Source of the DNA: Variovorax paradoxus
GTDB taxonomy: Bacteria; Pseudomonadota; Gammaproteobacteria; Burkholderiales; Burkholderiaceae_C
NCBI RefSeq assembly: GCF_018614955.1
Contig: NZ_JAGGNV010000014.1
Span: 124,001-188,000, forward strand
Direction of reading: 5' to 3'
DNA: 64,000 bases
Position 1 is the stretch's first letter. The number at the start of each line of letters is the position of its first letter. The notes below the pieces were generated by a model. That model had not been told where the DNA came from. It was given only the letters and a program-made list of their open reading frames with translations, and did no database searches. This document shows, in pieces, positions 33,695 to 51,299 of the stretch. The translations under genes and the position numbers were made by a program.

Positions 33695-33708
33695 TTGACC
33701 ATGGTCAA
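33695..33708 (+). promoter_or_regulatory. FNR-like palindrome upstream of tctC (site 1 of 3)
   Basis: TTGACCATGGTCAA, i.e. TTGAC-N4-GTCAA, preceded by CCGAAAAG. It is 92 nt before the tctC ATG. Nearly the same motif occurs upstream of oxc and of the MFS antiporter, and the island encodes a Crp/Fnr protein. Confidence 0.65.
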
Positions 33709-33800
33709 GCCGGCTTTGGGCGACGGCGCGCAGCATTCGCTTCACTGGGATTTCGACTGAGATTCCACGCAAAAAGAGCACAGCCCACATAGGAGACAAC

Positions 33801-34832
33801 ATGATCCGGAATCTCATCTCGCGCACCCAGGCATGCGGCGCCAGCCTGTCTACCGCGGCCGTCATGGCGCTGGCGGTCACGACACCTGCCTTCGCCGCGT
33901 GGGAGCCCACCAAGCCGGTGGAATTCGTGATCCCTGCCGGCACCGGCGGGGGCGCCGACCAGATGGCGCGACTGATGCAGGGCATCATCATCAAGCACAA
34001 GCTGATGAAGGAGCCGCTCATCGTCGTCAACAAGTCGGGCGGCGCCGGCGCCGAGGGCTTCCTCGCGGTCAAGGAAGCCAAGGGCGATCCGCACAAGATC
34101 ATCATCACGCTGTCGAACCTGTTCACGACGCCGATGGCCACCGGCGTGCCCTTCAACTGGAAGGACATGACCCCGGTCGCCATGATGGCGCTCGACCAGT
34201 TCGTGCTGTGGTCGAATGCCGAGGAGCCGTACAAGAGCGCCGCCGAATACATCGCCGCGGCGAAGGCGGCGGGTCCGAACAAGTTCAAGATGGCCGGCAC
34301 CGGCTCCAAGCAGGAAGACCAGATCATCACGGTGGCCCTCGAGAAGGCCACCGGCACGAAGTTCATCTACGTGCCCTTCAAGGGCGGCGGCGAAGTCGCG
34401 GTGCAGCTGGTGGGCGGCCACGTGCATTCCACCGTGAACAACCCGATCGAGGCGGTCGCCCAGTGGCGCGCCGGCAAGCTGCGCGCGCTGTGCGTGTTCG
34501 ACGACGAGCGCATGCCCTTCAAGACCAAGGTCACCGACACGCAGTCGTGGAACGACATCCCGACCTGCAAGGAAGCCGGCGTGCCGACCAAGTACACCAT
34601 GCTGCGCGGCATCTTCATGCCCGCGGGCGTGACGCCCGACCAGCTCAAGTTCTACGTGGACCTGCTGACCAAGGTCGCCGCAACGCCCGAGTGGAAGGAG
34701 TACATGGAGAAGGGTGCGTTCAATCCGACCTTCATGACCGGCGACGCGTTCGCGAAATGGCTCGCAGGCGCAGAGGCCACCCACCGCACCCTGATGACCG
34801 AAGCCGGCTTCCTGGCCGCCAGCGGCAAGTAA
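33801..34832 (+). CDS. tctC: Tripartite tricarboxylate transporter substrate-binding protein (TctC/Bug family)
   Basis: 343 aa. A signal peptide of about 32 residues ends TTPAFA-AW. The Bug fold is marked by KPVEFVIPAGTGGGADQMAR at the mature N-terminus, then GTGSKQEDQI and the YVPFKGGGEVAVQLVGGHV ligand loop. The protein captures a carboxylate in the periplasm and delivers it to TctAB. Followed by tctB and tctA and placed beside oxalate genes, its ligand is plausibly oxalate or another small dicarboxylate; the classical citrate role is less likely here. The gene is preceded by an FNR-like palindrome. Confidence 0.93.
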   Translation: MIRNLISRTQACGASLSTAAVMALAVTTPAFAAWEPTKPVEFVIPAGTGGGADQMARLMQGIIIKHKLMKEPLIVVNKSGGAGAEGFLAVKEAKGDPHKIIITLSNLFTTPMATGVPFNWKDMTPVAMMALDQFVLWSNAEEPYKSAAEYIAAAKAAGPNKFKMAGTGSKQEDQIITVALEKATGTKFIYVPFKGGGEVAVQLVGGHVHSTVNNPIEAVAQWRAGKLRALCVFDDERMPFKTKVTDTQSWNDIPTCKEAGVPTKYTMLRGIFMPAGVTPDQLKFYVDLLTKVAATPEWKEYMEKGAFNPTFMTGDAFAKWLAGAEATHRTLMTEAGFLAASGK

Positions 34833-34929
34833 CAGCGCGCCGAGCGGCGAACGCGACAGCCATCACCCTGCGCGGTGGATGGCCAGGGCGCCGCATTGGT
34901 TTTCATCACACATACGAGATGGGGGCTCC

Positions 34930-35454
34930 ATGGAGCACGACGAGAAATCCGGCGACGCCGCGACGCGCACGGGCGTTGCCACCAACCTGGTCGAGGCGGT
35001 GGTTGCGGCCATCCTGCTGATCATCGGCCTGGTGGTGGTCTTTGAAGCCCGCCGGCTGGGCGCGGGCTGGACGACCGATGGCCCCGGGGCGGGCTACTTC
35101 CCCTTCTACATCGGCCTGATCATCACCATCTCCGGCGCCGGCATCCTGTATCAAGCCCTGCTTGGAAAGCACAAGAAGACCGAGGTCTTCGTCGATTCGG
35201 AGCAGTTGAAGCGCGTGATGTCGGTGCTGGTTCCGGCGACGGTGTACGTGCTGGCCGTTTCCTTCCTGGGGCTGTACATCGCATCGGCGCTCTACATCGC
35301 GCTGTTCATGATCGTTCTTGGCAAGTACTCGTGGGTCAAGAGCGTCCTCGTCGCGCTGGCCGTCAACACGCTCTTCTTCTTCATGTTCGAAGTGTGGTTC
35401 AAGGTGCCCCTTTTCAAAGGCTCGCTCGACCCCCTTCGCTTTCTCGGCTACTGA
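34930..35454 (+). CDS. tctB: TTT transporter small membrane subunit TctB
   Basis: 174 aa with four hydrophobic segments: VEAVVAAILLIIGLVVVFEA, YFPFYIGLIITISGAGILY, PATVYVLAVSFLGLYIASAL and ALAVNTLFFFMFEVWFKV. The GPGAGYFPFYIGLI block near residues 52-65 is the TctB signature. It joins TctA in the inner membrane. The ATG at 34930 follows a GGGGG-CTCC ribosome region; the 97-nt gap from tctC is the longest in the operon. Confidence 0.9.
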   Translation: MEHDEKSGDAATRTGVATNLVEAVVAAILLIIGLVVVFEARRLGAGWTTDGPGAGYFPFYIGLIITISGAGILYQALLGKHKKTEVFVDSEQLKRVMSVLVPATVYVLAVSFLGLYIASALYIALFMIVLGKYSWVKSVLVALAVNTLFFFMFEVWFKVPLFKGSLDPLRFLGY

Positions 35455-35475
35455 ATCTCACGGAGCGAACGCGAA

Positions 35476-37005
35476 ATGGAAGAAATCAGTGCCCTGATGC
35501 AGGGCTTTGCAGTGATCCTGACGCCGACGAACATCGGCCTGATGTTCGTCGGCATCATCCTCGGCGTGCTGATCGGAGTGCTGCCGGGGCTGGGCGGGGC
35601 GAACGGGGTGGCCATCCTGCTGCCCCTCACGTTCACGATGTCGCCGACCTCGGCCATCATCATGCTGTCGTGCATCTACTGGGGCGCCTTGTTCGGCGGC
35701 GCCATCACCTCCGTGCTGTTCAACATCCCGGGCGAGCCGTGGTCTGTGGCCACCACCTTCGACGGCTATCCGATGGCCCAGCAGGGCAAGGCCGGTGCGG
35801 CGCTGACCACAGCGTTCACCTCGTCCTTCGTGGGCGCCTTCCTCGCGGTGGTGATGATCACCTTCCTGGCGCCGCTGGTGGCCAAGTTCGCGCTCAAGTT
35901 CGGCTCGCCCGAGTTCTTCGCGGTGTACCTGCTGACCTTCTGCAGCTTCGTCGGCATGGGCAAGGGCTCGCCCTTCAAGATCCTGGCGTCGATGGCGCTC
36001 GGCTTCGCGCTGGCCAGCGTCGGCATGGACACCGTGACCGGCCAGCTGCGCCTCACCTTCGGGCAGCCCGAGCTGATGCGCGGCTTTGACTTCCTGATCG
36101 CGGTCATCGGCCTGTTCGGCATCGGCGAGATCCTGCTGTCGATGGAGGAAGGCCTCCAGTTCTCCGGCAAGAGTGCGAAGATCGATCCCAAGGTGGTGCT
36201 GCAGACCTGGAAGCAGCTGCCGCAGTACTGGGTGACCTCGCTGCGCAGCTCGCTGATCGGCATCTGGATGGGCATCACGCCGGGCGGTGCCACGCCGGCC
36301 TCGTTCATGAGCTATGGCCTGGCCAAGAAGATGTCGAAGAACGGCCCCAAGTTCGGCACCGGCGAAATGGAAGGCGTCGTGGCGCCCGAGACCGCGGCGC
36401 ATGCCGCCGGCACCAGCGCGCTGCTGCCGATGCTGGCGCTGGGCATCCCGGGTTCGCCGACGGCCGCGGTGCTGCTGGGCGGCCTGCTGATCTGGGGCCT
36501 GCAGCCGGGTCCGCTGCTCTTCGTCGAACAGAAGGACTTCGTCTGGGGCCTGATCGCCAGCATGTACCTGGGCAACATCGTCGGCCTCATCGTCGTGCTG
36601 AGCACCGTGCCGCTGTTCGCCTCGATCCTGCGCATTCCGTTCTCGATCATCGCGCCGGTGATCATCGTGATCTGCGCGATCGGCGCCTACACCGTGCACA
36701 ACGCGATGCTCGACATCTGGTTCATGCTCGGCTTCGGCGTGGTGGGCTACCTCTTCAAGAAGCTCGACTTCCCGCTGGCGCCGCTGGTGCTGGCTCTGGT
36801 GCTCGGCGACAAGGCCGAAGACTCGTTCCGCCAGGCCATGCTGGTCTCGCAGGGCGACGTCATGATCATGTGGGCGAACCCGCTGGTCGGCAGCATCACC
36901 ACGCTGGCTTTGGTGCTCCTTTTCTGGCCGCTGATCTCGAAAGTGATGGCGCTGATCAAGCCAAAAAAGCCTGACGAGTTCGCCGTCGAGCGGCCGGTGG
37001 ACTGA
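35476..37005 (+). CDS. tctA: TTT transporter large membrane subunit TctA
   Basis: 509 aa, the usual length. The protein has about 11-12 TM segments. Diagnostic TctA blocks are GVLPGLGGANGVAILLPLTF near residue 36, GALFGGAITSVLFNIPGEP near 75, and the duplicated MGITPGGATPASFMSYGLAKK and MLALGIPGSPTAAVLLGGL in the second half. These repeat loops form the substrate path. It works with TctB and TctC for sodium- or proton-coupled uptake. GGAG lies before the ATG, and the gene is 21 nt after tctB. Confidence 0.95.
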   Translation: MEEISALMQGFAVILTPTNIGLMFVGIILGVLIGVLPGLGGANGVAILLPLTFTMSPTSAIIMLSCIYWGALFGGAITSVLFNIPGEPWSVATTFDGYPMAQQGKAGAALTTAFTSSFVGAFLAVVMITFLAPLVAKFALKFGSPEFFAVYLLTFCSFVGMGKGSPFKILASMALGFALASVGMDTVTGQLRLTFGQPELMRGFDFLIAVIGLFGIGEILLSMEEGLQFSGKSAKIDPKVVLQTWKQLPQYWVTSLRSSLIGIWMGITPGGATPASFMSYGLAKKMSKNGPKFGTGEMEGVVAPETAAHAAGTSALLPMLALGIPGSPTAAVLLGGLLIWGLQPGPLLFVEQKDFVWGLIASMYLGNIVGLIVVLSTVPLFASILRIPFSIIAPVIIVICAIGAYTVHNAMLDIWFMLGFGVVGYLFKKLDFPLAPLVLALVLGDKAEDSFRQAMLVSQGDVMIMWANPLVGSITTLALVLLFWPLISKVMALIKPKKPDEFAVERPVD

Positions 37006-37021
37006 GCGTCGAGGAGATCAC

Positions 37022-37858
37022 ATGCCTGTCATCGCAATGACCCAGGAGATGGGTTCCCTCGCCAAGGATGTGTCGCTGCGGCTCGCCGAGTCGCTCGGCC
37101 TGGCCGTCATGCGCCACGAGGCCATCGAGCGCGTGGCCGACCGCGCGCAGGTGTCCACCAGCCTGATCGGTCGCCTGCGCGACGGCAAGGCCGGGCTCGT
37201 GGAGCGCCTGACGACCGACAAGCGCAGCGTCGCCCTCTACACCGCGGAAGAACTGTTCGCGCTGGCCGACCGCGGCAACGTCGTGCTGCGCGGCTGGGGC
37301 GCCACCTGCCTGCTGCGTCCGGTGCCGCACGTGGTGTGCGTGCGCGTCACGCGTTCGTTCAAGAAGCGGGTCGAGTGGCTGATGGGCCACCTGGGCACCG
37401 ACGATGTCGAATTTGCGGAAGCCGAGCTGCGCCGCAGCGACCAGGCGCACGCGTCGCGCATGAACGACCAGTTCGGCGTCACCTGGGGCGACCCGGTGCT
37501 CTACGACCTGGTGCTCAACACCGATCGCTTGTCAGTCGAGAGCTGCGTGGAGCAGATCCGCCTGCTGGCGAGCCGCCCGGAGTTCGCCGAGACGCCCGAA
37601 TCGCGCACCATGCTCGCCAACATGGCGCTGGAAGCGCGCGTGCGGGCCGCGTTGAAGGAGCATGCGGCGACGCGCGACATCAACATCACCATCAACGCCA
37701 GGCAAGGTCAGGTCGCGCTGCGCGGGATCGTGCTCGACGCGGAAGAGCGAAGCCAGACCGAGGACGTTGCGGCGGCGGTGGCCGGCGTGCACAGCGTCGA
37801 CAACCAGCTGAGGCTGATGACCAGCTCGCGGCTGTTCGCCTCGTCCAAGCAGACCTAG
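37022..37858 (+). CDS. Cytidylate-kinase-like domain fused to a BON domain
   Basis: 278 aa. Residues about 1-190 match the cytidylate kinase-like family PF13189: an N-terminal MTQEMGSLAKDVSLRLAESLG where a P-loop-like GSGG-x-(E/D)I is usual, then HEAIERVADRA, FALADRGNVVLRGWGA and a VRVTRSFKKRVEWL lid-like basic stretch. The glycine-rich loop is degenerate (GSLAKDV, no Lys in the Walker position). Residues about 205-272 form a BON domain (DINITINARQGQVALRGIVLDAEE), normally found in envelope or osmotic-stress proteins. No signal peptide is present, so it is cytosolic. It is the last gene of the tct operon (16-nt gap). It shares the stop tetranucleotide CTAG with the convergent Crp/Fnr gene. 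The role is unknown; regulatory nucleotide sensing is a guess. Confidence 0.75.
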   Translation: MPVIAMTQEMGSLAKDVSLRLAESLGLAVMRHEAIERVADRAQVSTSLIGRLRDGKAGLVERLTTDKRSVALYTAEELFALADRGNVVLRGWGATCLLRPVPHVVCVRVTRSFKKRVEWLMGHLGTDDVEFAEAELRRSDQAHASRMNDQFGVTWGDPVLYDLVLNTDRLSVESCVEQIRLLASRPEFAETPESRTMLANMALEARVRAALKEHAATRDINITINARQGQVALRGIVLDAEERSQTEDVAAAVAGVHSVDNQLRLMTSSRLFASSKQT

Positions 37859-38463
37859 ATCTTTCCGCGCTTCTTCAGCCGGCTCAGGGTTTCCGCGGAG
37901 AGATTGAGATAGGAGGCCAGTTCCTTGCTCGGAATGCGATCCACCAGTTCCGGATGCTTGCGCATGAAGCGGTGCACGCGACCGGGTGCGTCCAGCAGGT
38001 GCAGCGTGATGGTGTGCGCCATGATCTCGCTCATCCCGCGCATGACGCTGAACTCGAACAGCTCCTTGCTTTCCGGATGGCGGTTCAGGAACGCGATCCA
38101 TTCCTTCAGCGGCAGGCTGGCCACGCGCGCCTTGGTCACGCACACGATGCCGTACGGCGTGGGCGTGCCGAGCCGCAGCGCGGCGTAGCTGGTCTCCATG
38201 TCGTTCTCGTCGGCGAAGCGCAGGATCATTTCCTTGCCCTCCGGGTTGCTCACCACCCGCTTGAGGATGCCGTCGAGGATGAAGTACTGCTCCATCTCGC
38301 GCACGCCCTGGTGCAGCAAAAAGTCGCCCTTGTGGCCGTCCACGACGGCGAGATGGGTTTCGAGCTCGGCGCGGTCGCTCTCGCTCAGGTCCTTGAGAAG
38401 GATGTTCTGCCGGAGCTGGGCGCGGATGATGTTTTTCTCCGGGTGGTTTTCCAACAACGTCAT
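37855..38463 (-). CDS. Crp/Fnr-family transcriptional regulator of the oxalate island
   Basis: 202 aa. The cyclic-nucleotide-binding-like beta barrel spans about 20-125 (GDFLLHQGVREMEQYFILDGILKRV) and is followed by the dimer helix. A short C-terminal HTH (about 172-202) ends IPSKELASYLNLSAETLSRLKKRGKI. The recognition helix keeps E-x2-S-R (ETLSR), the FNR residues that read TTGA half-sites. Only one cysteine is present (IVCV), so there is no FNR-type Fe-S cluster. The signal is unknown. It is divergent from oxc, and TTGAC-N4-GTCAA palindromes occur upstream of tctC, oxc and the MFS antiporter. I infer that it is their regulator. Confidence 0.88.
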   Translation of the reverse strand: MTLLENHPEKNIIRAQLRQNILLKDLSESDRAELETHLAVVDGHKGDFLLHQGVREMEQYFILDGILKRVVSNPEGKEMILRFADENDMETSYAALRLGTPTPYGIVCVTKARVASLPLKEWIAFLNRHPESKELFEFSVMRGMSEIMAHTITLHLLDAPGRVHRFMRKHPELVDRIPSKELASYLNLSAETLSRLKKRGKI

Positions 38464-38530
38464 GGTTCCCGTCTTGCTCGATTTCGCAACAACCGCCGGT
38501 TCGTCGGGGGAGCGCCCGTTTTCCGGAAAG

Positions 38531-38544
38531 TTGACCGAGGTCAA
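38531..38544 (+). promoter_or_regulatory. FNR-like palindrome between the Crp/Fnr gene and oxc (site 2 of 3)
   Basis: TTGACCGAGGTCAA, preceded by CCGGAAAG as at site 1 (CCGAAAAG). It is 73 nt before the oxc ATG. A CATAGT hexamer at 38569-38574 could serve as a -10 with the site near -41, the class II activator position. Confidence 0.7.
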
Positions 38545-38617
38545 CAGCTGAAAGCCTGGGCTCGAATCATAGTCGTGGCTCGGCCCCGGCCATTCACCAC
38601 AAAGCAGAAGGAGAGAC

Positions 38618-40405
38618 ATGTCTTCAGTTAGCACAGCCCAACAGGGAGCCACCACAGCCGACGACCTGGTCGCGCGTGCCCTCAAGAACATGACCGATGA
38701 CGCGCCGGCCCGCGAAACGACCGATGGCTTCCACCTGGTGATCGACGCGCTCAAGCTGAACGACATCGACACCATTTTCGGTCTGCCCGGCATCCCGATC
38801 ACCGACCTCACGCGCATGGCGCAGGCCGAAGGCATGCGCGTCATCTCGTTTCGCCACGAGCAGCACGCCGGCAACGCGGCCGCGGCCGCCGGCTTCCTGA
38901 CGCAGAAGCCCGGCATCTGCCTGACGGTGTCGGCGCCCGGCTTCCTCAACGGCCTGACCGCGCTGGCCAACGCCACCACCAACTGCTTCCCGATGATCCT
39001 GATCAGCGGCTCGAGCGAGCGCGAGATCGTCGATCTGCAGCAGGGCGATTACGAGGAGATGGACCAGCTCGCGATCGCCAAGCCGCTGTGCAAGGCGGCC
39101 TTCCGCGTGCTCCATGCCGAGGACATCGGCGTCGGCATCGCGCGGGCGATCCGCTCGGCCCTGTCGGGCCGCCCGGGCGGCGTGTATCTCGACCTGCCGG
39201 CCAAGCTGTTCGCGCAGACCATGGACGCGGCGGCCGGCAAAAGGTCGCTGATCAAGGTGGTCGACCCGGCGCCGCGCCAGATCCCGGCGCCCGACGCGGT
39301 GAAGCGCGCGCTCGACCTGCTCAAGAGCGCCAAGAAGCCGCTGATCCTGCTGGGCAAGGGCGCGGCCTATGCGCAGGCCGACGCCGACATTCGCGCGCTG
39401 ATCGAGAAGACCGGCATCCCCTATTTGCCGATGTCGATGGCCAAGGGCCTCCTGCCCGACACCCACGTGCAGTCGGCCGCGGCCGCGCGTTCGTATGTGC
39501 TGCAGGAAGCCGACGTCGTGATGCTGGTCGGCGCGCGCCTCAACTGGCTGCTGTCGCACGGCAAGGGCAAGACCTGGGCGCAGGAGAAGGGCGCCAAGCA
39601 GTTCATCCAGATCGACATCGCGCCGACCGAGATCGACAGCAACGTCGCGATCGCCGCGCCGGTGATCGGCGACATCGGCTCCTGCGTGGCGGCGCTCCTG
39701 GCCGGCGTCGACGGCAAGTGGGCCAAGCCGCCGGCCGACTGGACCGGCGCCATCGCCGAGCGCAAGGACAAGAACCTGTCGAAGATGGCCGCCACGCTGG
39801 CTGCCCGGCCCTCGCCGATGAACTTCCACAGCGCGCTCAGCGTGATCCGCGACCAGGTGAAGGCGCGGCCCGATGCGATCGTCGTCAACGAAGGCGCCAA
39901 CACGCTCGATTTCGCGCGCAGCATCGTCGACATGTACGAGCCGCGCAAGCGCCTCGACGTGGGTACCTGGGGAATCATGGGCATCGGCATGGGCTTCGCC
40001 GTCGCTGCGGCCGTGGTCACCGGCAAGCCGGTGATCGCCATCGAGGGCGACAGCGCCTTCGGCTTCAGCGGCATGGAAGTCGAAACCATCTGCCGCTACA
40101 ACCTCCCCATCTGCATCGTCGTCTTCAACAACAACGGCGTCTACCGCGGCACCGACGTGAACCCGAGCGGCACGCCCGACGTGGCGCCGACCGTGTTCGT
40201 CAAGAACGCGCGCTACGACAAGCTGATCGAGGCCTTCGGCGGCGTCGGCGTCAACGCCACCACCGCGGACGAGCTGGAGAAGGCCCTGGCCGAGGCCGTC
40301 GCCTCCGGCCGGCCGACCCTGATCAACGCCGTGATCGACGAGACCGCCGGCACGGAAAGCGGCCGCATCACCAGTCTGAACCCGGCAACGGCGAAGAAGA
40401 AGTAA
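38618..40405 (+). CDS. oxc: Oxalyl-CoA decarboxylase
   Basis: 595 aa. It is a ThDP enzyme converting oxalyl-CoA to formyl-CoA and CO2 in the cytoplasm. The N-terminal Pyr domain has [16 protein letters not shown] and the catalytic Glu in [15 protein letters not shown]. The ThDP/Mg motif starts [21 protein letters not shown] at residues 477-497 and ends with the asparagines of [11 protein letters not shown]. The [14 protein letters not shown] block is typical of Oxc. Length fits (Oxalobacter Oxc is 568); the extra residues are an N-terminal extension. It has a GGAGAG ribosome site and heads an operon with two frc genes. Confidence 0.96.
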
Positions 40406-40430
40406 TCCCAGGCAATACAGGAGATATCCC

Positions 40431-41693
40431 ATGAGCAGCAGCAACAAACCACTCAACGGCATCAAGATCATCGACTTCACCCATGTCCAGGCCGGTCCCG
40501 CCTGCACCCAGATGCTGGCCTGGTTCGGCGCCGACGTCATCAAGGTCGAGCGTCCGGGCTCCGGCGACGTCACGCGCACGCAGCTGCGCGACATCCCCGA
40601 CGTCGACGCGCTCTACTTCACCATGCTCAACAGCAACAAGCGCTCGCTGACGCTGGACACCAAGCAGCCCGAGGGCAAGGTGGTGCTGGAGAAGCTGATC
40701 CGCGAATCCGACGTGCTGGTCGAGAACTTCGGCCCCGGCGCGCTCGACCGCATGGGCTTCACCTGGGAGCGCATCCAGGAGCTGAACCCCAAGATGATCG
40801 TCGCCTCGGTCAAGGGCTTCAGCGACGGCCACCACTACGACGACCTCAAGGTCTACGAGAACGTCGCGCAGTGCGCCGGCGGCGCCGCCTCGACCACCGG
40901 CTTCTGGGACGGCCCGCCGACCGTGAGCGCTGCCGCCCTGGGCGACAGCAACACCGGCATGCATCTCGCGATCGGCATCCTGACCGCCATCATCGGCCGC
41001 CAGCAGACCGGCAAGGGCCAGCGGGTCGCCTGCGCGATGCAGGACGCGGTGCTCAACCTCTGCCGCGTGAAGATGCGCGACCAGTTGCGCCTGGACAAGC
41101 TCGGCTACCTGGAAGAGTACCCGCAGTACCCGCACGGCACCTTCAGCGACGTCGTGCCGCGCGGCGGCAATGCCGGCGGCGGCGGCCAGCCGGGCTGGGT
41201 GCTCAAGTGCAAGGGCTGGGAAACCGACCCCAACGCCTACATCTACTTCACGGTGCAGGGCCACGCCTGGGCCCCGATCTGCGACGCCATCGGCAAGCCC
41301 GAATGGAAGACCGACCCCGACTACACGACGGCCAAGGCGCGCCAGCCGCACATCACCGCGATCTTCGCGACCATCGAGGACTGGCTGGCCGACAAGACCA
41401 AGTTCGAGGCGGTCGACATCCTGCGCAAGTTCGACATTCCCTGCTCGCCGGTGCTGACGATGAAGGAACTGCTGCACGACGAATCGCTGCGCAAGAGCGG
41501 CTCGATCGTCGAGGTGAAGGGCCACAAGGAGCGCGGCAACTACTTCACCGTCGGCAGCCCGATCAAGTTCTCCGACCTGAAGCCCGAGATCACGCCGTCG
41601 CCCCTCCTGGGCGAGCACACCGACGATGTGCTGGCCGAGCTCGGTTACAGCAAGGAGGAGATCACCAATCTGCGCGAAGCCAAAGCGGTCTGA
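40431..41693 (+). CDS. frc: Formyl-CoA:oxalate CoA-transferase, copy 1
   Basis: 420 aa, class III (CaiB/BaiF) CoA-transferase. It moves CoA from formyl-CoA to oxalate, giving oxalyl-CoA for Oxc. The N-terminus [21 protein letters not shown] and [13 protein letters not shown] are family boxes. Catalytic Asp172 lies in [13 protein letters not shown], equivalent to Asp169 of the Oxalobacter enzyme. [13 protein letters not shown] glycine loop near 244-255 corresponds to the flexible loop that gates the active site. AGGAGAT precedes the ATG; it is 25 nt after oxc. Confidence 0.95.
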
Positions 41694-41716: not shown

Positions 41717-42154
41717 TTGCAATCGAATGTGGATTTGAAACAGCTCGTCGCCGGCGCCGGCGACGCGATCATGGTCGCGGATGCGCAAGGGGCGATCACG
41801 CTCTGGAACCAGGCTGCCGAGCGCATCTTCGGCTACACCGAAGCCGAGGCGCTGGGCAAGTCGCTCGATCTGATCATCCCGGAACGCCAGCGCGGCCGGC
41901 ACTGGGACGGCTATCAGAAGACCATGGACACGGGCATCACCAAGTACGGCGCCGACCTGCTGCGCGTGCCCGCCCTGCACAAGGATGGGCACACGCTGTC
42001 GATCGCCTTCACGGTATCGATGCTGTTCTCCGAAGATCGAAAGGTCACGGGCATCGTCGCCATCGTGCGCGACGAGACCGCCCGCTTCGCCGAGGAGCGC
42101 AAACTGCGCGCTCGTCTGGTAGAAGTCGAGGCCAGATCCAAGGAGACACAATGA
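41717..42154 (+). CDS. Stand-alone PAS-domain protein
   Basis: 145 aa from a TTG with GAGGGAG 8 nt upstream (a GTG at 41729 is an alternative). Nearly the whole protein is one PAS domain: [45 protein letters not shown], then the core-closing [21 protein letters not shown], ending in a short coiled helix ([16 protein letters not shown]). There is no output domain, His or heme-specific motif. It lies between the two frc genes and overlaps frc copy 2 as ATGA, so it is part of the oxalate operon. I infer a sensory or protein-interaction role, possibly feeding the Crp/Fnr regulator or a kinase elsewhere. Confidence 0.85.
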
Positions 42155-43398
42155 GCAAGGCACTCGAGGGCGTTCGGATTCTCGATTTCACCCATGTGCA
42201 GTCGGGCCCCACCTGCACCCAGCTGCTGGCCTGGTTCGGCGCCGACGTGATCAAGGTCGAGCGCGCCGGCGAAGGCGACGCGACGCGCGGCCAGCTGCGC
42301 GACATTCCCGGTGTGGACAGCCTCTATTTCACGATGCTGAACCACAACAAGCGCTCGATCACGCTGGACACCAAGAAGCCGAAGGGCAAGCAGGTGCTGG
42401 ACACGCTGATCAAGACCTGCGACGTGCTGGTCGAGAACTTCGCGCCCGGCGCGCTGGACCGCATGGGCATCACCTGGAGCCACATCCAGGACTTGAACCC
42501 GCGCATGATCGTGGCCTCGGTCAAGGGCTTCGGCCCCGGCAAGTACGAGCACTGCAAGGTCTACGAGAACGTTGCGCAGTGCGCCGGCGGCGCTGCGTCG
42601 ACCACCGGCTTCGAGGACGGCCCGCCCGTCGTCACCGGCGCGCAGATCGGCGACAGCGGGACCGGCCTGCACCTGGCGCTCGGCATCGTCGCCGCGCTCT
42701 ACCAGCGCAACAGCACCGGGCGCGGGCAGCAGGTGCTGGCGCCGATGCAGGACGCGGTGCTCAACCTGTGCCGCGTGAAGATGCGCGACCAGCAGCGGCT
42801 GGAGCGCACCGGCACCATGCACGAGTACCCGCAGTACCCCGACGGCAAGTTCGGCGACGCGGTGCCGCGCGCCGGCAACGCCTCCGGCGGCGGCCAGCCG
42901 GGCTCGATCCTGCGCTGCAAGGGCTGGGAGACCGACCCGAATGCGTACATCTACTTCATCACGCAGGGCGCAGTCTGGCCGGCGGTGTGCAAGGTCATCG
43001 GGGAAGAGGGCTGGATCGACGACGAGGCCTATGCCACGCCGGCCGCGCGCCTCCTGCACCTGAAGCCGATCTTCGCGCGCATCGAGAAGTGGACCATGAC
43101 CAAGGACAAGTTCGAGGCCATGGAGATCCTCAACAAGTACGACATTCCCTGCGGGCCGATCCTGTCGATGAAGGAGATCGCCGCGGACGAATCGCTGCGC
43201 GAGACCGGCACCATCGTCGAGGTCGATCACCCGACGCGGGGCAAGTACCTGACGGTCGGCAACCCCATCAAGATGTCCGACAGCCCGACCGAGGTGACGC
43301 GTTCGCCGCTGCTCGGCGAACACACCGAGGAAGTGCTGCGCCAGCTCGGCTACAGCGCGGACGACGTGGCGATGCTGCGCGAAGAACGGGTGATCTGA
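42151..43398 (+). CDS. frc: Formyl-CoA:oxalate CoA-transferase, copy 2
   Basis: 415 aa, a close paralogue of copy 1, with many identical stretches including [16 protein letters not shown] and RVKMRDQ. Catalytic Asp168 is in [13 protein letters not shown] and the glycine loop reads [12 protein letters not shown]. It differs mainly in the C-terminal third. Two Frc paralogues in one operon suggest different CoA donors (formyl-CoA versus succinyl-CoA or acetyl-CoA, as for YfdW and YfdE). The ATG overlaps the PAS stop by 4 nt. Confidence 0.94.
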
Positions 43399-43510
43399 GC
43401 GGGGCGCGGACGAGGGCGAGCACGGATTCAGGCGCCCTCGATCCATAACTCATAGCGAATGCATTCAATAAAATACTTTCACTATTAATTATCGATCAGC
43501 CATCCTACAT

Positions 43511-43557: not shown

Positions 43558-43572
43558 TTCATGGAGAAGCTC

Positions 43573-43899
43573 ATGGTCAATGATTTGCCAATTCAATACT
43601 GGAACGACGAGGTCGAGCGCAATGCGTACAACGCAGCGTTCTACGAATTGGGTTTCCGGTGGTATTGGGACAGCCCTACCTATTATGAATTGCTGACCAG
43701 GATTCCGGATGCCGCCGACCGGATCTGCCATTACCTGAAGACCCGCCAGCCCCATTTGCTGCGCGCGTACGACGCGAAATTCCTGGTCGAAGTCATCCAG
43801 CAGAAGCAGGCCGAGCACCGCAAGCGCGGTCCCGCGCCGGGCGCCGCTTCGGGGCATTTCGATTGGGCGACCGTGGCTGGTGCCGAACTCGGCGCGTAA
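43573..43899 (+). CDS. 108-aa orphan protein of the oxalate island
   Basis: 108 aa from ATG 43573, chosen because GGAG lies 6 nt upstream; the ATG at 43561 has no ribosome site. I do not recognise the family. It is soluble, with no signal or TM. An aromatic-rich N-terminal half (DLPIQYWNDEVERNAYNAAFYELGFRWYWDSPTYYELL) is followed by basic helices (HLLRAYDAKFLVEVIQQKQAEHRKRG) and a flexible tail. It is followed 16 nt later by the SucC-like gene and appears to head that operon. Its upstream DNA is AT-rich with a stem-loop. A role in oxalate metabolism is inferred from position only. Confidence 0.7.
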   Translation: MVNDLPIQYWNDEVERNAYNAAFYELGFRWYWDSPTYYELLTRIPDAADRICHYLKTRQPHLLRAYDAKFLVEVIQQKQAEHRKRGPAPGAASGHFDWATVAGAELGA

Positions 43900-43915
43900 T
43901 TTCGTCTGCTTCCCC

Positions 43916-45013: not shown

Positions 45014-45014
45014 G

Positions 45015-45914
45015 ATGTCGATCCTCGTCAACAAGCACACGCGCGTGATCACGCAGGGCATCACCGGCAGGGCCGGCCGCATCCACACCGCGGCGTGCCG
45101 CGCCTACGGCAACGGCCGCCACTGCTTCGTCGCCGGCGTGAACCCGAACAAGGCCGGCGCGTCCGTCGACGGCATCCCGGTCTTCGCCACGGTGAGGGAA
45201 GCCAGGGCCGAGACCGGCGCGACCGTCTCCGTGATCTACGTGCCCCCGGCCTCCGCGGCCGCCGCCATCGACGAGGCGGTCGATGCCGGGCTCGAGCTGG
45301 TCATCTGCATCACCGAAGGCATCCCGGTGCGCGACATGATCCGCACGCGCCGCCGCATGGAGGGCAGGGGGACGGTGCTGCTCGGCCCCAACTGTCCCGG
45401 CCTCATCACGCCCGAGGAGATCAAGATCGGCATCATGCCGGGCGACATCCACCAGCGCGGCCGCATCGGCGTGGTCTCGCGCTCCGGCGCGCTGGGCTAC
45501 GAGGCCGTGAACCAGCTTCATCAATTCGGCATCGGCCAGTCGACGGTGGTCGGCATCGGCGGCGATCCGATCGGCGGGCTGCGCTACCTCGACGTGCTTC
45601 GGATGTTCAACGACGACCCGCTCACCGACGCCGTCATCATGGTCGGCGAGATCGGCGGCGATGCCGAAGAGACCTGCGCGCGCTGGATCAAGGAGCACAT
45701 GCGCAAGCCCGTGGTCGGCTTCATCGCCGGCGCCACCGCGCCGCCTGACCGGCGCATGGGCCACGCGGGCGCCATCGTTTCCGACGGCCAGGGCACGGCG
45801 GAGGAAAAGCTGGCCGTGATGCAGGCGTGCGGCATTCACGTCACGCGCAACCCGGCCGAGATGGGAAAGCTGCTGGCCTCCCTGGTCGCCCCAGACTACC
45901 TCCCCTTCGACTGA
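45015..45914 (+). CDS. SucD-like CoA ligase alpha subunit
   Basis: 299 aa; E. coli SucD is 289. The Rossmann CoA-binding motif is [19 protein letters not shown], with [11 protein letters not shown] following. [22 protein letters not shown] and [15 protein letters not shown] are conserved. The phospho-histidine is His250 in RMGHAGAI, so the catalytic relay is complete. It pairs with the divergent SucC-like subunit (1-nt gap, near-overlap). Compared with housekeeping SucD the N-terminal motif is altered (ITGRAGRIH for FTGxxGTFH), consistent with a specialised acyl-CoA synthetase such as the malyl-CoA synthetase (MtkAB) group. Confidence 0.88.
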
Positions 45915-45938
45915 ACTCCCTACCAAGAGACACGCGGC

Positions 45939-46712
<774 letters not shown>

Positions 46713-46742
46713 CAAAGAGATTCAACACTTCAAGGGATCGAC

Positions 46743-47753
46743 ATGAAGATAGCAGTCATCGGCGCAGGCGCCATCGGCGGCCTGGTCGGAGCAAAGCTCG
46801 CATTGGCCGGCGAGGACGTGACGTTCATCGTGCGCGGCGCCAACCTCGACGCCATCGCCACCCACGGCTTCAAGCTCATCGCGGCCGACGGCGAGGAGCA
46901 GGTGGCCCGCAATGTCAAGGCCACCGACCGCTACGACCAGGCCGGTGTGCAGGACATCGTCATCCTTGCGATGAAGGCGCACCAGGTCGAAGCGGTGGCG
47001 AACGAAGTGCCGAAGCTCTTCGGCCCCGAGACCGTGGTGGTGACGATGCAGAACGGCATCCCATACTGGTACTTCCACAAGCACGGCGGGCCGCTCGAAG
47101 GGACGACGGTGAAGAGCGTCGACCCGCACGGGGTGGTCGGCGCCAAGATCCCGGCGGACCGCGTGATCGGCTGCGTGGTCTACCCAGCGTCCGAGCTGGT
47201 GGCGCCGGGCGTGGTGAAACACATCGAGGGCGACCGCTTTCCCGTCGGCGAACTGGACGGCACCTCCAGCGAGCGCGTGAACCGCGTTGCGGCCTGCTTT
47301 GCCAACGCGGGCTTCAAGGCGCCGGTGCTCGACAACATCCGCGCCGAGATCTGGCTCAAGCTCTGGGGCAACCTGACCTTCAATCCGATCAGCAGCCTGG
47401 CGCATTCGACGCTGGTCGACATCTGCCAGTACCCGCCCTCGCGCGACCTCGCCGCCGCGATGATGCGGGAAGCCCAGGCCGTCGCGCACAAGCTGGGCAT
47501 CGAGTTCCGCGTGTCGCTGGAAAAGCGCATCGCCGGCGCCGAGAAGGTGGGCAAGCACAAGACCTCGATGCTGCAGGACGTGGAGGCCGGGCGTGCGCCG
47601 GAGATCGATGCGCTGGTGGGTGCGGTGGTGGAGCTGGCGCGGCTCACCGACACGCCGACGCCGCACATCGATACTGTCTACTCCTTGGTCAAGCTGCTCG
47701 CCCGCACGATGGAGGACCAGCGCGGACGGGTCCGCCTTCACGAGATGGCTTGA
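46743..47753 (+). CDS. 2-dehydropantoate 2-reductase (PanE/ApbA) family oxidoreductase
   Basis: 336 aa. The NAD(P) Rossmann motif is MKIAVIGAGAIGGLVGAKLA, followed by ILAMKAHQVEAV and MQNGIPYWYF. The C-terminal ApbA domain starts near residue 190 with the conserved Lys in EIWLKLWGNLTFNPISSLAHST. In this family the Lys acts in ketoacid reduction. Context (FAH, CoA ligase, pyruvate kinase remnant) suggests reduction of a small 2-ketoacid such as glyoxylate-like or tartronate-like compounds rather than pantothenate synthesis; this is inference. It is 30 nt after the FAH gene. Confidence 0.88.
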   Translation: MKIAVIGAGAIGGLVGAKLALAGEDVTFIVRGANLDAIATHGFKLIAADGEEQVARNVKATDRYDQAGVQDIVILAMKAHQVEAVANEVPKLFGPETVVVTMQNGIPYWYFHKHGGPLEGTTVKSVDPHGVVGAKIPADRVIGCVVYPASELVAPGVVKHIEGDRFPVGELDGTSSERVNRVAACFANAGFKAPVLDNIRAEIWLKLWGNLTFNPISSLAHSTLVDICQYPPSRDLAAAMMREAQAVAHKLGIEFRVSLEKRIAGAEKVGKHKTSMLQDVEAGRAPEIDALVGAVVELARLTDTPTPHIDTVYSLVKLLARTMEDQRGRVRLHEMA

Positions 47754-47763
47754 GGCCCTCACC

Positions 47764-48638
47764 ATGAGACGCGCCCGCAGCGCCAAGATCGTCGCCACGC
47801 TCGGGCCGGCCACCTCCGACGAGCAGGCCATCCGTGCCCTGTTCGAGCGCGGCGTGGACGTGTTCCGGCTCAACTTCAGCCACGGCACGCAGTCCGACCA
47901 TGCGCAGCGGCTCGCGACCATCCGCGCGCTGGAGAAGGAATTCGGTCGGCCGATTGGCGTGCTGCTCGATCTGCAAGGGCCGAAGCTGCGCCTGGGCACC
48001 TTCGAAGGTGGCAGGACGCAGCTCGAAGCCGGCGCGCGATTGCGGCTCGACATGGACAAGCGCCCCGGCGATGCCCGCCGCGCCCCGCTGCTGCACCCCG
48101 AGATCTTCGCGGCGCTGCAGGCCGGCACCGAGCTTCTGCTCGACGACGGCAAGCTGCGCCTGCGCGTGGAAAGCCATGGCGCCGACTTCGCCGAGACCAC
48201 CGTCCTCGTCGGCGGACCGATCTCGGACCGCAAGGGCGTCAACGCGACGCCACGCACGCCGCGGCCGAGGCAACCACCGCCGACGCGGTCTGCGCGTCGC
48301 TGCGCAACGTGGCCGGGCTGCTCTCTCCGGCCGCCACCGTGACCTACACCTCCTCGGGCTTCACCAGCCTGCGCGCTGCGCGCGAACGGCCTGCGGTGCC
48401 GGTCCTGAGCCTGACGCCCTCGGTCGCCACCGCGCGCCGCATGGCCATGGTCTGGGGCGTGCATGCGGTAGTGGTCGACGACGTTCACGATGTCGCCGAG
48501 ATGATCGAGTGCGCCTGCCGCAGCGCGCGCGACGAAGGATTCGCGAAGCCGGGCGACGATGTGGTGGTCGTGGCGGGCCTGCCCTTCGGACAGTCCGGAA
48601 CGACGAACCTGCTGCACGTCGCGCGCATCGCGCGCTAG
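47764..48638 (+). pseudogene. pyk: Pyruvate kinase remnant with internal deletion and frameshift
   Basis: The first part (47764 to about 48242) encodes an authentic pyruvate kinase N-terminus of about 160 residues: RSAKIVATLGPATSDEQAIR, RLNFSHGTQSDH, VLLDLQGPKLRLG, LLDDGKLRL and GPISDRKGVN. At GVN the frame changes and the sequence jumps to the C-terminal allosteric domain, readable in the next frame from about 48245 to the TAG at 48638: ATHAAAEATTADAVCASL, TYTSSGFTSLRAARERPAVP, LSLTPSVATARRMAMVWG and GLPFGQSGTTNLLHV. Roughly 170-200 residues, including the catalytic Lys and the Mg-binding residues, are missing. The remnant cannot be active. It follows panE-like by 10 nt, so it was once the operon's last gene. 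Confidence 0.88.
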
Positions 48639-49492
48639 GCTTTTCGGACGTCCGTTCCCGCGGCCTGGCGCAAGCCAGCCAGCGCGGGATCGATGATCGC
48701 GGGATCGGCGCCCACCGCGTAGACCGCATAGGCGGGGTAGAGAAACTCCGGCGTGCGCGGCACGCGGCGCAGGTGCCCGGACTCCAGATGGCCGCGGACC
48801 ACGTCGAGCCGGAAGTAGCCGGTGCCGCCGGCGGCCAGCAGGTACTCGCGGCCGAGCGGCCCGAGCCCGGCCATCACCGCCGCGCTGGACAGCTCGGGAA
48901 AGGCCAGGCCGTGCTGCGCCGCGAACTCGGGTCCCCAGTCGACATACACATAGTCCGCCGGGCGCGGCACGCGCGGGCGTTTCGCAGTCGTCACCATGAC
49001 GAGCTTTTCCTCGATCAGGAGCTCCACGCGCAGCCCGGGCCGCTGCTGCGGCGCGTAGGCGATGGCGACGTCGAGCACGCCCGCGGCCACCTTGTCGAGC
49101 AGATCGTGCGGGTAGCCGACTTCCGTGCGCAGCGCCAGGTGCGGGTGCCTGGCGCGCATCCACAGCAGCCAGCGCAGCAGCAGCGGATCCCACAGGCTGA
49201 TCTCGCACCCTGCCGCGAGCACCGCGCGGCTGCCGGTCGGCACCGCCACCTGGTCGCGCGCCCGCGCCCAGACCTGCACCAGCGTGGTGGCATGCGGCAG
49301 GAAGCGCTCGCCGGCCGCGGTGAGCGCGGCGCCGGCCTTGTTGCGCACGAAGAGCCGGCGGCCGAGCAGCTCTTCGAGCGTTCGCACGCGCGCGCTGACC
49401 GAGGTCTGCGTCACATGCAGCCGCTCGGCGGCGCGCTGGAAGCTGCGGGTCTCGACGATCTCGAGGAAGGTGCGGGCCAGGTTGATGTCCAT
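48635..49492 (-). CDS. LysR-family transcriptional regulator
   Basis: 285 aa. The N-terminal HTH is INLARTFLEIVETRSFQRAAERLHVTQTSVSARVRTLEELLGRRLFVR. The effector domain (about 90-285) opens with LAAGCEISLWDPLLLRWLLWMRARHP. It converges on the pyruvate kinase remnant, sharing the CTAG stop tetranucleotide, and is divergent from the 78-aa paralogue B. It is probably a local regulator; targets are unknown. The start ATG 49492 directly precedes the HTH. Confidence 0.9.
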   Translation of the reverse strand: MDINLARTFLEIVETRSFQRAAERLHVTQTSVSARVRTLEELLGRRLFVRNKAGAALTAAGERFLPHATTLVQVWARARDQVAVPTGSRAVLAAGCEISLWDPLLLRWLLWMRARHPHLALRTEVGYPHDLLDKVAAGVLDVAIAYAPQQRPGLRVELLIEEKLVMVTTAKRPRVPRPADYVYVDWGPEFAAQHGLAFPELSSAAVMAGLGPLGREYLLAAGGTGYFRLDVVRGHLESGHLRRVPRTPEFLYPAYAVYAVGADPAIIDPALAGLRQAAGTDVRKA

Positions 49493-49612
49493 CGCTGCCG
49501 ATCGTTTGAATGCATGATTTTTGCATTCAACTGGCAATAAATCTCGTTTTACTTGAAGCCAAGTCCGTCCGAACATGGAGGCATCGCAACCCGCTGCTAT
49601 CAGGAACCCACC

Positions 49613-49849
49613 ATGTCCATCCTTCAACATTCCTTCGGTTCGAGCCCCGCCCACGCCCGGGCCCGCGCGCTCAGGACCTTGGCCGCCGAGGCCGGCGCAC
49701 TCGTCAAGGCCTTGCTCAATCCGAACCAGATCATCGAGGAAGTCGAGCAGATGCGTGCCTTGCACGCCGCTGCGAACCGCGTCGAGGCCAGCAACGCGGC
49801 GCGCGCCGCCTGGCTTCGCTCGCGCGCCTCGCGCATCGGCCTGCGCTGA
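49613..49849 (+). CDS. 78-aa conserved orphan protein, paralogue B
   Basis: 78 aa, the same length as the protein at 33320-33556 and related to it (about 46 of 78 positions identical by eye; ALLNPN-x-II, EVEQMRALH, EASN-x-ARAA, R-x-GLR). Helical, basic, no membrane segment. The ATG at 49613 gives the same N-terminal MS start as the paralogue. The function is unknown. The two copies lie in opposite orientation on either side of the tct-oxc-frc-sucCD genes. Confidence 0.75.
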   Translation: MSILQHSFGSSPAHARARALRTLAAEAGALVKALLNPNQIIEEVEQMRALHAAANRVEASNAARAAWLRSRASRIGLR

Positions 49850-49867
49850 TGCGCGGGGGGTGACCGC

Positions 49868-51193
49868 CTAGGACTGCTGCTGGCTCTGCGCGATGTGCTT
49901 GCGCCGCATCGGGCGCAGCACGAACCACGCCATCAGCGCCGCGGCGGCGTTGACCGCGCTGGCGGCGATGAAGACCGCCTGCCAGCTGCCGGTGGCCGCG
50001 GCGAGCATGCTCGAGAGCGGCACCAGCAGCGAGGCCGTGCCCTTGGCGGTGTAGAGCATGCCGGCGTTGGAAGCCGCGTACCTGGAGCCGAAGGTGTCGG
50101 CGCAGGTCGAGGGGAAGAGGCTGTAGATCTCGCCCCAGGCGAAGAACACGATGCCGGTCAGCACGACGAAGAGGATCGGGTTCTGGCCGTAGTGGTAGAG
50201 CATCAGGATGCCCACCGATTCCAGCGCGAACGCGATGAACATCGTCTGCTCGCGCCCGATCTTGTCGGAGACCCAGCCGAAGAAGGGCCGCGTCAGGCCG
50301 TTGAGCACGCGGTCGATGGCGAGCGCGAAGGTCAGCGCAGGCAGCACCAGGCCCATGATGTTGACCGGCACGTCCATGATCTTGAAGTCCTTGGCGATCG
50401 GCGCGAGCTGGGCCGTGGCCATCAGGCCACCGGCGGCCACCATCACGAACATCGCATACATGACCCAGAAGACGGGTGACCTCAGCACTTCGGAAGGGGC
50501 GTAGTCGCGGCTCGATTGCTGCACGTTGCGACTGTTCGACGCCTTCGCATGATCGGGTGCCCGGGTCAGTGCCCAGGCCAGCAGGAAGACGATCAGCCCC
50601 TGCCCGATGCCGAAGTAGAGGAAGGCCGCCTCGTAGCCGTGCGAGTGGATCATCGCGGAGATCGGGATGATCGTGAGGGCCGATCCGGCGCCGAAGCCGG
50701 CCGCGGTCATGCCCGCGGCGAGGCCGCGCCGATCGGGGAACCACTTCAAGGCATTGCCCACGCAGGTGCCGTAGACCGCGCCGGCGCCGATGCCGCCGAT
50801 CGCCGCGGCGATATAGAGCACCGGCAACGAGGAAGCCACCGAATTGAGCACCCATCCGAGCCCGCACAGCACGCCGCCGACCAGCACCACCGGGCGCGGG
50901 CCGAAACGGTCGACGAGGTAGCCTTCGATCGGCACCAGCCAGGTTTCGGTGAGCACGAAGATCGTAAAAGCCACCTGGATCGCGGCGCGGCTCCAGCCGT
51001 GCTTGTCGGCGATCGGATTGACGAAGAGGGTCCAGCCGTATTGCAGGTTGGCGATCATCGCCATGCACACGATGCCGATCAGCAGTTGGCCCCATCGGTA
51101 GGTCTGCGATCGGTTCGCGGCTGCGTCGGAGCTTGCCGCGTGGGGATACATCGCCGGGTTGGAACCCGCGATCGTGGTTGATTGCCGAGTCAT
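49868..51193 (-). CDS. OxlT-like MFS oxalate/formate antiporter family transporter
   Basis: 441 aa with twelve TM segments. MFS signature EGYLVDRFGPRPVVLVGG (loop 2-3) and its counterpart FGWVSDKIGREQTMFIAF (loop 8-9) are present. YGWTLFVNPIADKHGWSRAAIQVAFTIF and GIGAGAVYGTCVGNALKWFPDRRG are typical of the oxalate/formate antiporter family. It would exchange external oxalate for formate, which fits the oxc/frc genes nearby. A long polar N-terminus of about 30 residues precedes TM1. It lies 128 nt downstream of a LysR gene on the same strand and carries its own FNR-like palindrome upstream. Confidence 0.92.
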   Translation of the reverse strand: MTRQSTTIAGSNPAMYPHAASSDAAANRSQTYRWGQLLIGIVCMAMIANLQYGWTLFVNPIADKHGWSRAAIQVAFTIFVLTETWLVPIEGYLVDRFGPRPVVLVGGVLCGLGWVLNSVASSLPVLYIAAAIGGIGAGAVYGTCVGNALKWFPDRRGLAAGMTAAGFGAGSALTIIPISAMIHSHGYEAAFLYFGIGQGLIVFLLAWALTRAPDHAKASNSRNVQQSSRDYAPSEVLRSPVFWVMYAMFVMVAAGGLMATAQLAPIAKDFKIMDVPVNIMGLVLPALTFALAIDRVLNGLTRPFFGWVSDKIGREQTMFIAFALESVGILMLYHYGQNPILFVVLTGIVFFAWGEIYSLFPSTCADTFGSRYAASNAGMLYTAKGTASLLVPLSSMLAAATGSWQAVFIAASAVNAAAALMAWFVLRPMRRKHIAQSQQQS

Positions 51194-51285
51194 GGAGTCT
51201 CCTGTTGTCGTAGAGGTCCAGCGGCATCGGAACGCCGGACCGGTTTTGGAGTGGAAGACTGTCGGACGGCGCGGCGCAAACGCTC

Positions 51286-51299
51286 TTGACCGCAGTCAA
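51286..51299 (-). promoter_or_regulatory. FNR-like palindrome upstream of the MFS antiporter (site 3 of 3)
   Basis: TTGACCGCAGTCAA on the plus strand, TTGAC-N4-GTCAA. It lies 93 nt upstream of the antiporter ATG, almost the same distance as site 1 to tctC (92 nt). Confidence 0.65.

What the first reader, a model, noticed from the sequence alone, without database searches (positions are those of the whole stretch)
33695..51299. A three-site TTGAC-N4-GTCAA regulon for the oxalate island's own Crp/Fnr protein
Palindromes TTGACCATGGTCAA (33695), TTGACCGAGGTCAA (38531) and TTGACCGCAGTCAA (51286) lie 92, 73 and 93 nt upstream of tctC, oxc and the OxlT-like antiporter: the two uptake systems and the key catabolic enzyme. 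Sites 1 and 2 also share the preceding CCG(A/G)AAAG. The island encodes a Crp/Fnr protein with the FNR-type recognition residues E-x2-S-R but no Fe-S cysteine cluster. The signal is therefore not O2 by the classic route; oxalate, oxalyl-CoA or formyl-CoA, or a nucleotide, are candidates.
Basis: partly seen in the sequence, partly recalled or inferred. Interest (0 to 1): 0.78.

Follow-up and report, generated by a model that had tools for sequence, protein, structure and literature searches.

The report
Crp/Fnr switch for oxalate catabolism
A soil bacterium's oxalate-eating genes are probably switched on together by their own small DNA-binding protein, whose binding palindrome sits before the same key genes in many related bacteria; what signal it senses is unknown.

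Summary
The three palindromes are real (the third is 92, not 93, nt from its gene). They are 3 of the 4 exact TTGACN4GTCAA in the 7.0 Mb genome; the fourth is inside a gene. In 80 relatives' loci a relaxed palindrome precedes oxc in 72/74, tctC in 60/61, MFS in 8/9 and the regulator in 76/77, but tctA, tctB, frc2, FAH, panE and sucD in none. Regulator and oxc occupy the same 35 of 61 same-genus genomes and share 67 of 399 order genomes (76 and 75 singly). None of 8 order-sample oxc loci without the regulator has the site. In that wider sample the tctC and MFS sites are patchy (14/26; 0/3). A -10-like hexamer lies 32-33 bp from the site centre at oxc and MFS, as in class II activation. So: a dedicated Crp/Fnr activator of oxalate genes. 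The operator equals that of HcpR1, so the DNA code is known; the target pathway seems undescribed in the open papers searched. Binding, activation and signal are untested; FNR cysteines and CRP's cAMP-phosphate residues are missing.

The parts
33695..33708 (+). operator 1, TTGACCATGGTCAA, 92 nt before tctC
   Evidence: palindrome before tctC in 60/61 genome-contig loci
33731..33737 (+). candidate -10 region of tctC (CAGCATT), centre 32-33 bp from the operator centre; weak
33801..34832 (+). tctC, tripartite tricarboxylate transporter receptor
   Evidence: Pfam PF03401
34930..35454 (+). tctB
   Evidence: Pfam PF07331
35476..37005 (+). tctA
   Evidence: Pfam PF01970
37022..37858 (+). cytidylate-kinase-like protein fused to a BON domain, downstream of tctA
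   Evidence: Pfam PF13189 and PF04972; beside tctA in many relatives
37855..38463 (-). Crp/Fnr-type regulator, 202 aa (P0001), divergent from oxc
   Evidence: Pfam PF00027; translation; orthologue alignment A1; AF2 model of CRP fold
38531..38544 (+). operator 2, TTGACCGAGGTCAA, between the regulator and oxc
   Evidence: palindrome before oxc in 72/74 genome-contig loci
38568..38573 (+). -10-like hexamer CATAGT of oxc, centre 33 bp from the operator centre
38618..40405 (+). oxc, oxalyl-CoA decarboxylase
   Evidence: TIGR03254 1000.5 bits, cut-off 739.4
40431..41693 (+). frc1, formyl-CoA transferase
   Evidence: TIGR03253
41717..42154 (+). small PAS-domain protein between the two frc genes (TTG start assumed)
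   Evidence: Pfam PF00989; kept in many relatives
42151..43398 (+). frc2, formyl-CoA transferase
   Evidence: TIGR03253
49868..51193 (-). oxalate/formate MFS antiporter
   Evidence: TIGR04259 664.7 bits, cut-off 335
51258..51263 (-). -10-like hexamer GACAGT of the MFS gene, centre 32 bp from the operator centre
51286..51299 (-). operator 3, TTGACTGCGGTCAA in gene orientation, 92 nt before the MFS gene
   Evidence: palindrome before 25/25 close MFS orthologues in the genus, the window's own included

Best explanation
The 202-aa Crp/Fnr protein at 37855-38463 is a dedicated, locally encoded activator of oxalate use. Its homodimer binds TTGACC-N2-GGTCAA through a recognition helix with E191, S194 and R195. 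From an operator centred near -41.5 it activates, class II fashion, the oxc-frc-PAS-frc operon and the MFS antiporter gene, and probably the tctCBA-kinase operon. The signal is not O2 through an FNR cluster and not cAMP by CRP's phosphate contacts. Most likely it is a small molecule tied to oxalate uptake or CoA-thioester flux, bound in the beta-roll. Shown by computation: sites, conservation, co-occurrence with the regulator, and -10 spacing at oxc and MFS. Inferred: binding, activation rather than repression, operon extents, and the signal.
For: Sites and rarity. Conservation at the targets and not at the other genes; 30 of 30 fetched family loci (own included, of 35 genomes) have a palindrome upstream of the regulator. 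A reversed control pattern gave 0 in every upstream region and a second control (TTCA..TGAA type) gave 2, both at frc2; the reversed control gave 0 in 671,052 bases of 60 loci. Co-occurrence of regulator and oxc: genus 35 and 35 of 61, same genomes; family 35 and 37 of 200, no genome with regulator alone (one of the 37 oxc hits, G104, is partial and below the cut-off); order 67 both, 9 regulator only, 8 oxc only, 315 neither, of 399. No site at 8 of 8 order-sample oxc loci without regulator and none in 15 kb around G049's. The site follows the target when gene order changes, e.g. L098, L121, L123, L161, L209, L210, L217, L234. -10-like hexamer at +32/+33: oxc mean score 1.34 and MFS 1.13 against null maxima averaging -4.08 and -3.65 in 500 shuffles; tctC -2.44 against -3.76, highest null -2.89. 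Recognition-helix residues fit the published position-180/181 rule (passages, PMC1274295).
Against: No binding or expression data exist here. In the order sample tctC has the site in only 14 of 26 loci, MFS at 70% identity or more in 0 of 3 (a match lies farther out in L188), and the regulator in 41 of 52. Of the 11 without, 5 (L209, L210, L219, L231, L238) have the site before oxc instead, 2 (L193, L198) before frc2, L214 has one 504 nt before frc2, and L194, L196 and L213 have none there. L103 in the genome contigs set has no site at all. G052 has three sites but no detected regulator, with oxc at a contig end. Nine order genomes carry the regulator without oxc. The tctC -10 is weak, and the regulator side also gives a score above its null, at +17, from an A-rich flank. 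Genus-wide, genomes without the regulator still have a median of 3 exact palindromes somewhere (6 with it), so the motif alone is not diagnostic. The genome sets overlap and relatives are not independent.
Confidence: 0.85

Rival explanations
1. The regulator represses the oxalate genes in the absence of oxalate and is released by the inducer.
For: Crp/Fnr proteins can do both; HcpR sites overlapping -10 boxes were read as repressor sites (passage, PMC545781).
Against: At oxc and MFS the site is 32-33 bp upstream of the -10-like hexamer, where the -35 element would be, instead of overlapping -10 or the start, and the consensus of the site-aligned sequences shows no other conserved -35-like block. 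That fits an activator acting from the site.
Confidence: 0.1
2. The palindrome is read by another protein: a different FNR/CRP-type regulator of the cell, or the LysR protein beside the MFS gene.
For: The genome has 17 cNMP_binding matches, the regulator among them. The palindrome technically contains the T-N11-A spacing of LysR sites (recalled).
Against: Of the 12 other proteins whose loci were fetched, two carry E-x2-S-R in the HTH (L006, L008), both with arginine at position 180 as in CRP; 4 further matches were not examined. Sites occur in loci where no LysR homologue was found. Regulator and oxc co-occur, and the site is missing at 8 of 8 order-sample oxc loci lacking the regulator.
Confidence: 0.06
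3. The conserved palindromes are promoter or mRNA features and not operators.
For: TTGAC resembles a -35 element.
Against: A pattern demanding both half-sites is met at 72/74 oxc while the reversed pattern is met at none. The inner C and G of TTGACC..GGTCAA, which the pattern did not demand, are also conserved (1.12 bits each). No Rfam family matches the window; no -10 lies 17 bp from TTGACC at sites 1 and 2 by eye; presence tracks the regulator.
Confidence: 0.02

Closest known systems
HcpR1 of delta-proteobacteria (Desulfuromonas, Desulfotalea; Crp/Fnr)
   Same: Predicted operator TTGACCNNGGTCAA / wyTTGACnnnnGTCAArw, essentially the same as here; no FNR cysteines; comparative-genomics regulon (passages of PMC545781 and PMC1274295).
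   Different: Targets there are hcp, frdX and nitrogen-oxide or sulfate-reduction genes; here they are oxalate genes. P0001 gave no HcpR chain among its sequence matches up to E 0.001; HcpR of P. gingivalis is a fold-level match only (13-14% identity).
FNR / DNR
   Same: E-x2-S-R recognition helix (FNR residues recalled) and TTGA-N6-TCAA half-sites.
   Different: No Fe-S cysteines; most operators here are TTGAC, not TTGAT (one orthologue locus, L018, has TTGATCGCGATCAA); DNR is only E 9e-4 by sequence.
CRP (E. coli)
   Same: CRP fold and class II geometry (recalled for CRP).
   Different: Ala190 stands at CRP Arg180, and Thr102-Pro103 at Arg82-Ser83, in the alignment.
Cytophaga hutchinsonii 3dn7
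   Same: Nearest solved structure by sequence (E 9e-12).
   Different: Function and ligand not known to me; 21% identity over 145 columns.

Membership tests
Crp/Fnr superfamily | N-terminal cNMP-binding beta-roll | tested here: met
Crp/Fnr superfamily | C-terminal HTH with recognition helix | tested here: met
   helices 179-185 and 190-198 in the model; SAETLSR aligned to CRP SRETVGR; no separate Pfam HTH hit; protein ends just after the HTH
FNR (O2 sensor) | conserved N-terminal Fe-S cysteines | tested here: not met
   one Cys in P0001; no cysteine column common to 30 orthologues
CRP (cAMP sensor) | Arg82-Ser83 cAMP-phosphate contacts (residue roles recalled) | tested here: not met
   Thr102-Pro103 at those positions in the phmmer alignment to CRP; P103 invariant 30/30
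HcpR | operator TTGACCNNGGTCAA | tested here: met
HcpR | regulates hcp/frdX or nitrogen-oxide genes | tested here: inconclusive
   no exact site in the own genome outside the island except one inside a gene, but upstream regions of hcp-like genes were not searched
HcpR | haem/NO sensing (recalled) | not testable with these tools
   needs purified protein
class II Crp-type activator | site centred near -41.5 with -10 about 32 bp downstream (recalled) | tested here: met
   oxc (n=37) and MFS (n=21) best offset +32; tctC (n=32) weak at +33; transcription starts not mapped

The most novel reading that the evidence does not exclude
A Burkholderiales-wide Crp/Fnr subfamily whose beta-roll senses an oxalate-pathway metabolite (oxalate, oxalyl-CoA or formyl-CoA) and controls a formyl-CoA regulon. 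In some members of that regulon oxalyl-CoA decarboxylase is replaced by a 2-hydroxyacyl-CoA-lyase-like ThDP enzyme in the same promoter position (7 of 9 regulator-only genomes of the order sample).
Probability: 0.35. Interest if true: 0.72.

Novelty: new member of a known kind. Interest (0 to 1): 0.5.

Why it matters
Oxalate breakdown by soil and gut bacteria matters for the oxalate-carbonate cycle, fungus-bacterium interactions and kidney-stone research (recalled), yet nine text searches of the open library listed no paper that I could recognise as describing a Crp/Fnr regulator of oxc and frc (most subscription papers are not held, and most hits were seen only as listings). This gives a named protein, an operator and predicted promoters that simple gel-shift and reporter assays can test, and a Crp/Fnr protein whose ligand may be new.

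Tried and rejected
Chance explanation: rejected by genome-wide counts and conservation. RNA element: no Rfam match at gathering score. cAMP or O2 as signal by the classic residues: not met. Autoregulation: the site lies within 300 nt of the regulator in 76/77 and 41/52 loci, but the regulator side has no -10 peak near +32 (its best offset, +17, is an A-rich flank), and in L209, L210, L219 and L231 the site precedes oxc while the regulator has none within 300 nt, so I left it open. Wider regulon in the own genome: 12 of the 17 further one-mismatch sites were checked; 11 are in coding-like ORFs (judged by codon-position GC) and L175 is unclear. Ligand: the model and fold search gave the CRP fold but no ligand clue; in the second-look list GlxR/CRP, FNR and 3dn7 chains are tied within about 1 Z, so it does not choose a family. 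Taxonomic range: at E 1e-40 only the own genome matched in a class sample of 369; of its 21 listed rows 4 are of this order, the other 348 rows were not shown. In one search the sucC and pyk queries were in wrong frames (stops inside); their rows were ignored and sucC was corrected.

Counting rules: one search uses TTGA[CT]N4[GA]TCAA from 300 nt upstream to 30 nt inside the matched gene start; genes too near a locus end were dropped. Misses in the genome contigs set: L103 (oxc and regulator), L114 oxc (site present in the gap but farther away), L114 MFS (an internal alignment piece), L094 tctC (24% identity, doubtful orthologue), L080 (distant ThDP piece). In the order set L207 and L237 have a match in the oxc-regulator gap beyond 300 nt, panE has 1/4 and MFS homologues below 70% identity 3/10 (0/12 in the genome contigs set). 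Of the 76 order-sample regulator genomes 52 loci were fetched for this count. The genus, family, order and genome contigs sets share genomes. Searches use one representative per similar upstream region (46/37 for oxc, 37/32 tctC, 22/21 MFS, 52/45 regulator side); one search's printout was cut, so not every regulator-side row was seen. The matrix was built from pattern-selected sites, one of them (L127) the window's own site 3.
Full report
What is there. The window is a stretch of a 7.0 Mb genome that falls in Variovorax by its nearest named relatives (regulator 99% identical in Variovorax sp. MHTC-1). It holds tctC-tctB-tctA and a cytidylate-kinase/BON gene. Then, divergently, come a 202-aa Crp/Fnr protein (minus strand) and oxc-frc1-PAS-frc2 (plus strand), followed by CoA-ligase, FAH-family and PanE-family genes, and an oxalate/formate MFS antiporter on the minus strand. 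The three palindromes lie 92, 73 and 92 nt from the start codons of tctC, oxc and the MFS gene.

More than chance. TTGACN4GTCAA occurs 4 times in the genome, 3 of them here; the reversed pattern occurs 3 times. The fourth copy lies inside an ABC ATPase-like gene. TTGACCN2GGTCAA occurs only at sites 1 and 2. A matrix built from 165 pattern-selected sites (one of them the window's own site 3) gives 24.3-25.1 bits to the three sites and 12.4 bits to the next best place of the window.

Conserved where it should be. One scan of 84,980 species genomes returned the 80 best regulator loci of 507 relatives. Within them the relaxed palindrome stands before 72/74 oxc, 60/61 tctC, 8/9 MFS (70% identity or more) and 76/77 regulators. 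It stands before 0/62 tctA, 0/61 tctB, 0/64 frc2, 0/45 FAH, 0/46 panE, 0/48 kinase-BON, 0/32 sucD and 0/12 more distant MFS genes, with 2/67 frc1, 1/52 PAS, 2/3 of the ThDP genes described below and 2/5 paralogues of the regulator. The reversed control gave 0 throughout and a second control 2, both at frc2. In the family sample 30 of 30 fetched loci have a palindrome upstream of the regulator. In the genus, 25 of 25 MFS orthologues at 78% identity or more carry it (the window's own included; L151 is a partial gene), against 2 of 5 fetched paralogues at 50-58%. In a wider set, 52 of the 76 regulator loci of the order sample, it precedes 34/36 oxc, 41/52 regulators, 14/26 tctC, 0/3 MFS, 3/10 more distant MFS genes, 8/48 frc2 and 7/7 of the ThDP genes. 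The site at the regulator-oxc promoter is thus the widespread core; tctC and MFS sites are more local.

Tied to this regulator. In 61 genomes of the genus the regulator and oxc are each in 35, the same 35. In 200 genomes of the family they are in 35 and 37; the two oxc-only genomes are G049, with no site in 15 kb, and G052, with three sites and oxc at a contig end. In 399 genomes of the order they are in 76 and 75, 67 shared. Kinship inflates the Fisher value (1e-56), but the 8 oxc-only loci are a natural control: 0 of 8 have the site before oxc. Gene orders differ between loci, yet the palindrome usually stays before oxc or another first gene of the oxalate cluster; L103, L194, L196 and L213 are exceptions. 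The class sample at E 1e-40 gave only the own genome (1 of 369), so the regulator looks largely confined to this order.

How it probably works. When upstream regions are aligned on the palindrome, a -10-like hexamer appears 32-33 bp from its centre: TATGAT, TATCAT or CATAGT at many oxc promoters and GACAGT at 14 of 21 MFS promoters. tctC gives a weaker version. The regulator side gives no peak there; its best offset is +17, an A-rich flank. That spacing is the class II arrangement of Crp/Fnr activators with the operator near -41.5 (established knowledge, recalled). GAAA is also conserved just upstream of the site on the oxc side. The recognition helix has Ala190 (29 of 30), Glu191, Ser194 and Arg195 (30 of 30). 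Under the correlation published for HcpR, DNR and NnrR (a non-arginine at CRP position 180 goes with T, not G, at motif position 3; passages of PMC1274295) this predicts a TTGA operator, as seen. The model is a CRP fold (mean pLDDT 84.1). Binding and activation remain inferred.

Signal. FNR's cysteines are absent and CRP's Arg82-Ser83 are Thr102-Pro103. Invariant residues around the phosphate cassette (E90, T91, Y93, P101, P103, Y104) suggest a different ligand. Oxalate, oxalyl-CoA and formyl-CoA are reasonable guesses from the genes alone.

A lead beyond the finding. In 7 of the 9 order genomes with the regulator but no TIGR03254 oxc (among them G265, whose locus resembles that of Collimonas in L099, L100 and L106), the place of oxc beside the site and regulator is taken by a ThDP enzyme only 25-26% identical to Oxc. 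For the one from L187 the best solved relatives are 2-hydroxyacyl-CoA lyases (E 1e-80), and the four scanned are below every NCBIfam cut-off shown. It lacks the Tyr-Glu pair and the C-terminal Ser-x-Arg that the window's Oxc has (their catalytic role is recalled). It may replace Oxc or act on formyl-CoA in another way. Collimonas responds to oxalic acid (statement in a passage of PMC5986945, citing a paper I did not see).

Known or new. The operator is the one predicted for HcpR1 (passages of PMC545781 and PMC1274295), so the DNA code is known. What appears new is the regulon: a Crp/Fnr subfamily devoted to oxalate catabolism. The open-paper searches listed no such report that I recognised.

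Noticed in passing
L187 6103-7869; L188, L189, L190, L191, L192, L215; L087, L158: A 2-hydroxyacyl-CoA-lyase-like ThDP enzyme (25-26% to Oxc) stands in oxc's place next to the operator and regulator in 7 of 9 regulator-only genomes of the order sample.
   Followed up: partly
window 41717-42154: A 145-aa PAS-domain protein sits between the two frc genes and is conserved in many relatives; possible extra sensor.
   Followed up: no
window 37022-37858: A cytidylate-kinase-like domain fused to a BON domain follows tctA and is conserved there in many relatives.
   Followed up: no
L133, L136-L140, L142, L143, L145-L147: Eleven of the 25 close MFS loci of the genus have a second palindrome between the MFS gene and the LysR gene.
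   Followed up: no
window 32100-33282: An XRE-type HTH gene followed by an AbiEii-like nucleotidyltransferase, a type IV toxin-antitoxin-like pair at the edge of the oxalate genes.
   Followed up: no
L097, L098, L114, L121, L123: A second Crp/Fnr paralogue (36-49% identity) lies near MFS-type genes; 2 of 5 have a palindrome within 300 nt upstream.
   Followed up: no
L157 and L158 (G197): A genome whose oxc lies about 680 kb from the regulator shows no palindrome in the fetched 11 kb around that oxc (the stretch starts inside tctB); its regulator stands beside the ThDP gene.
   Followed up: partly
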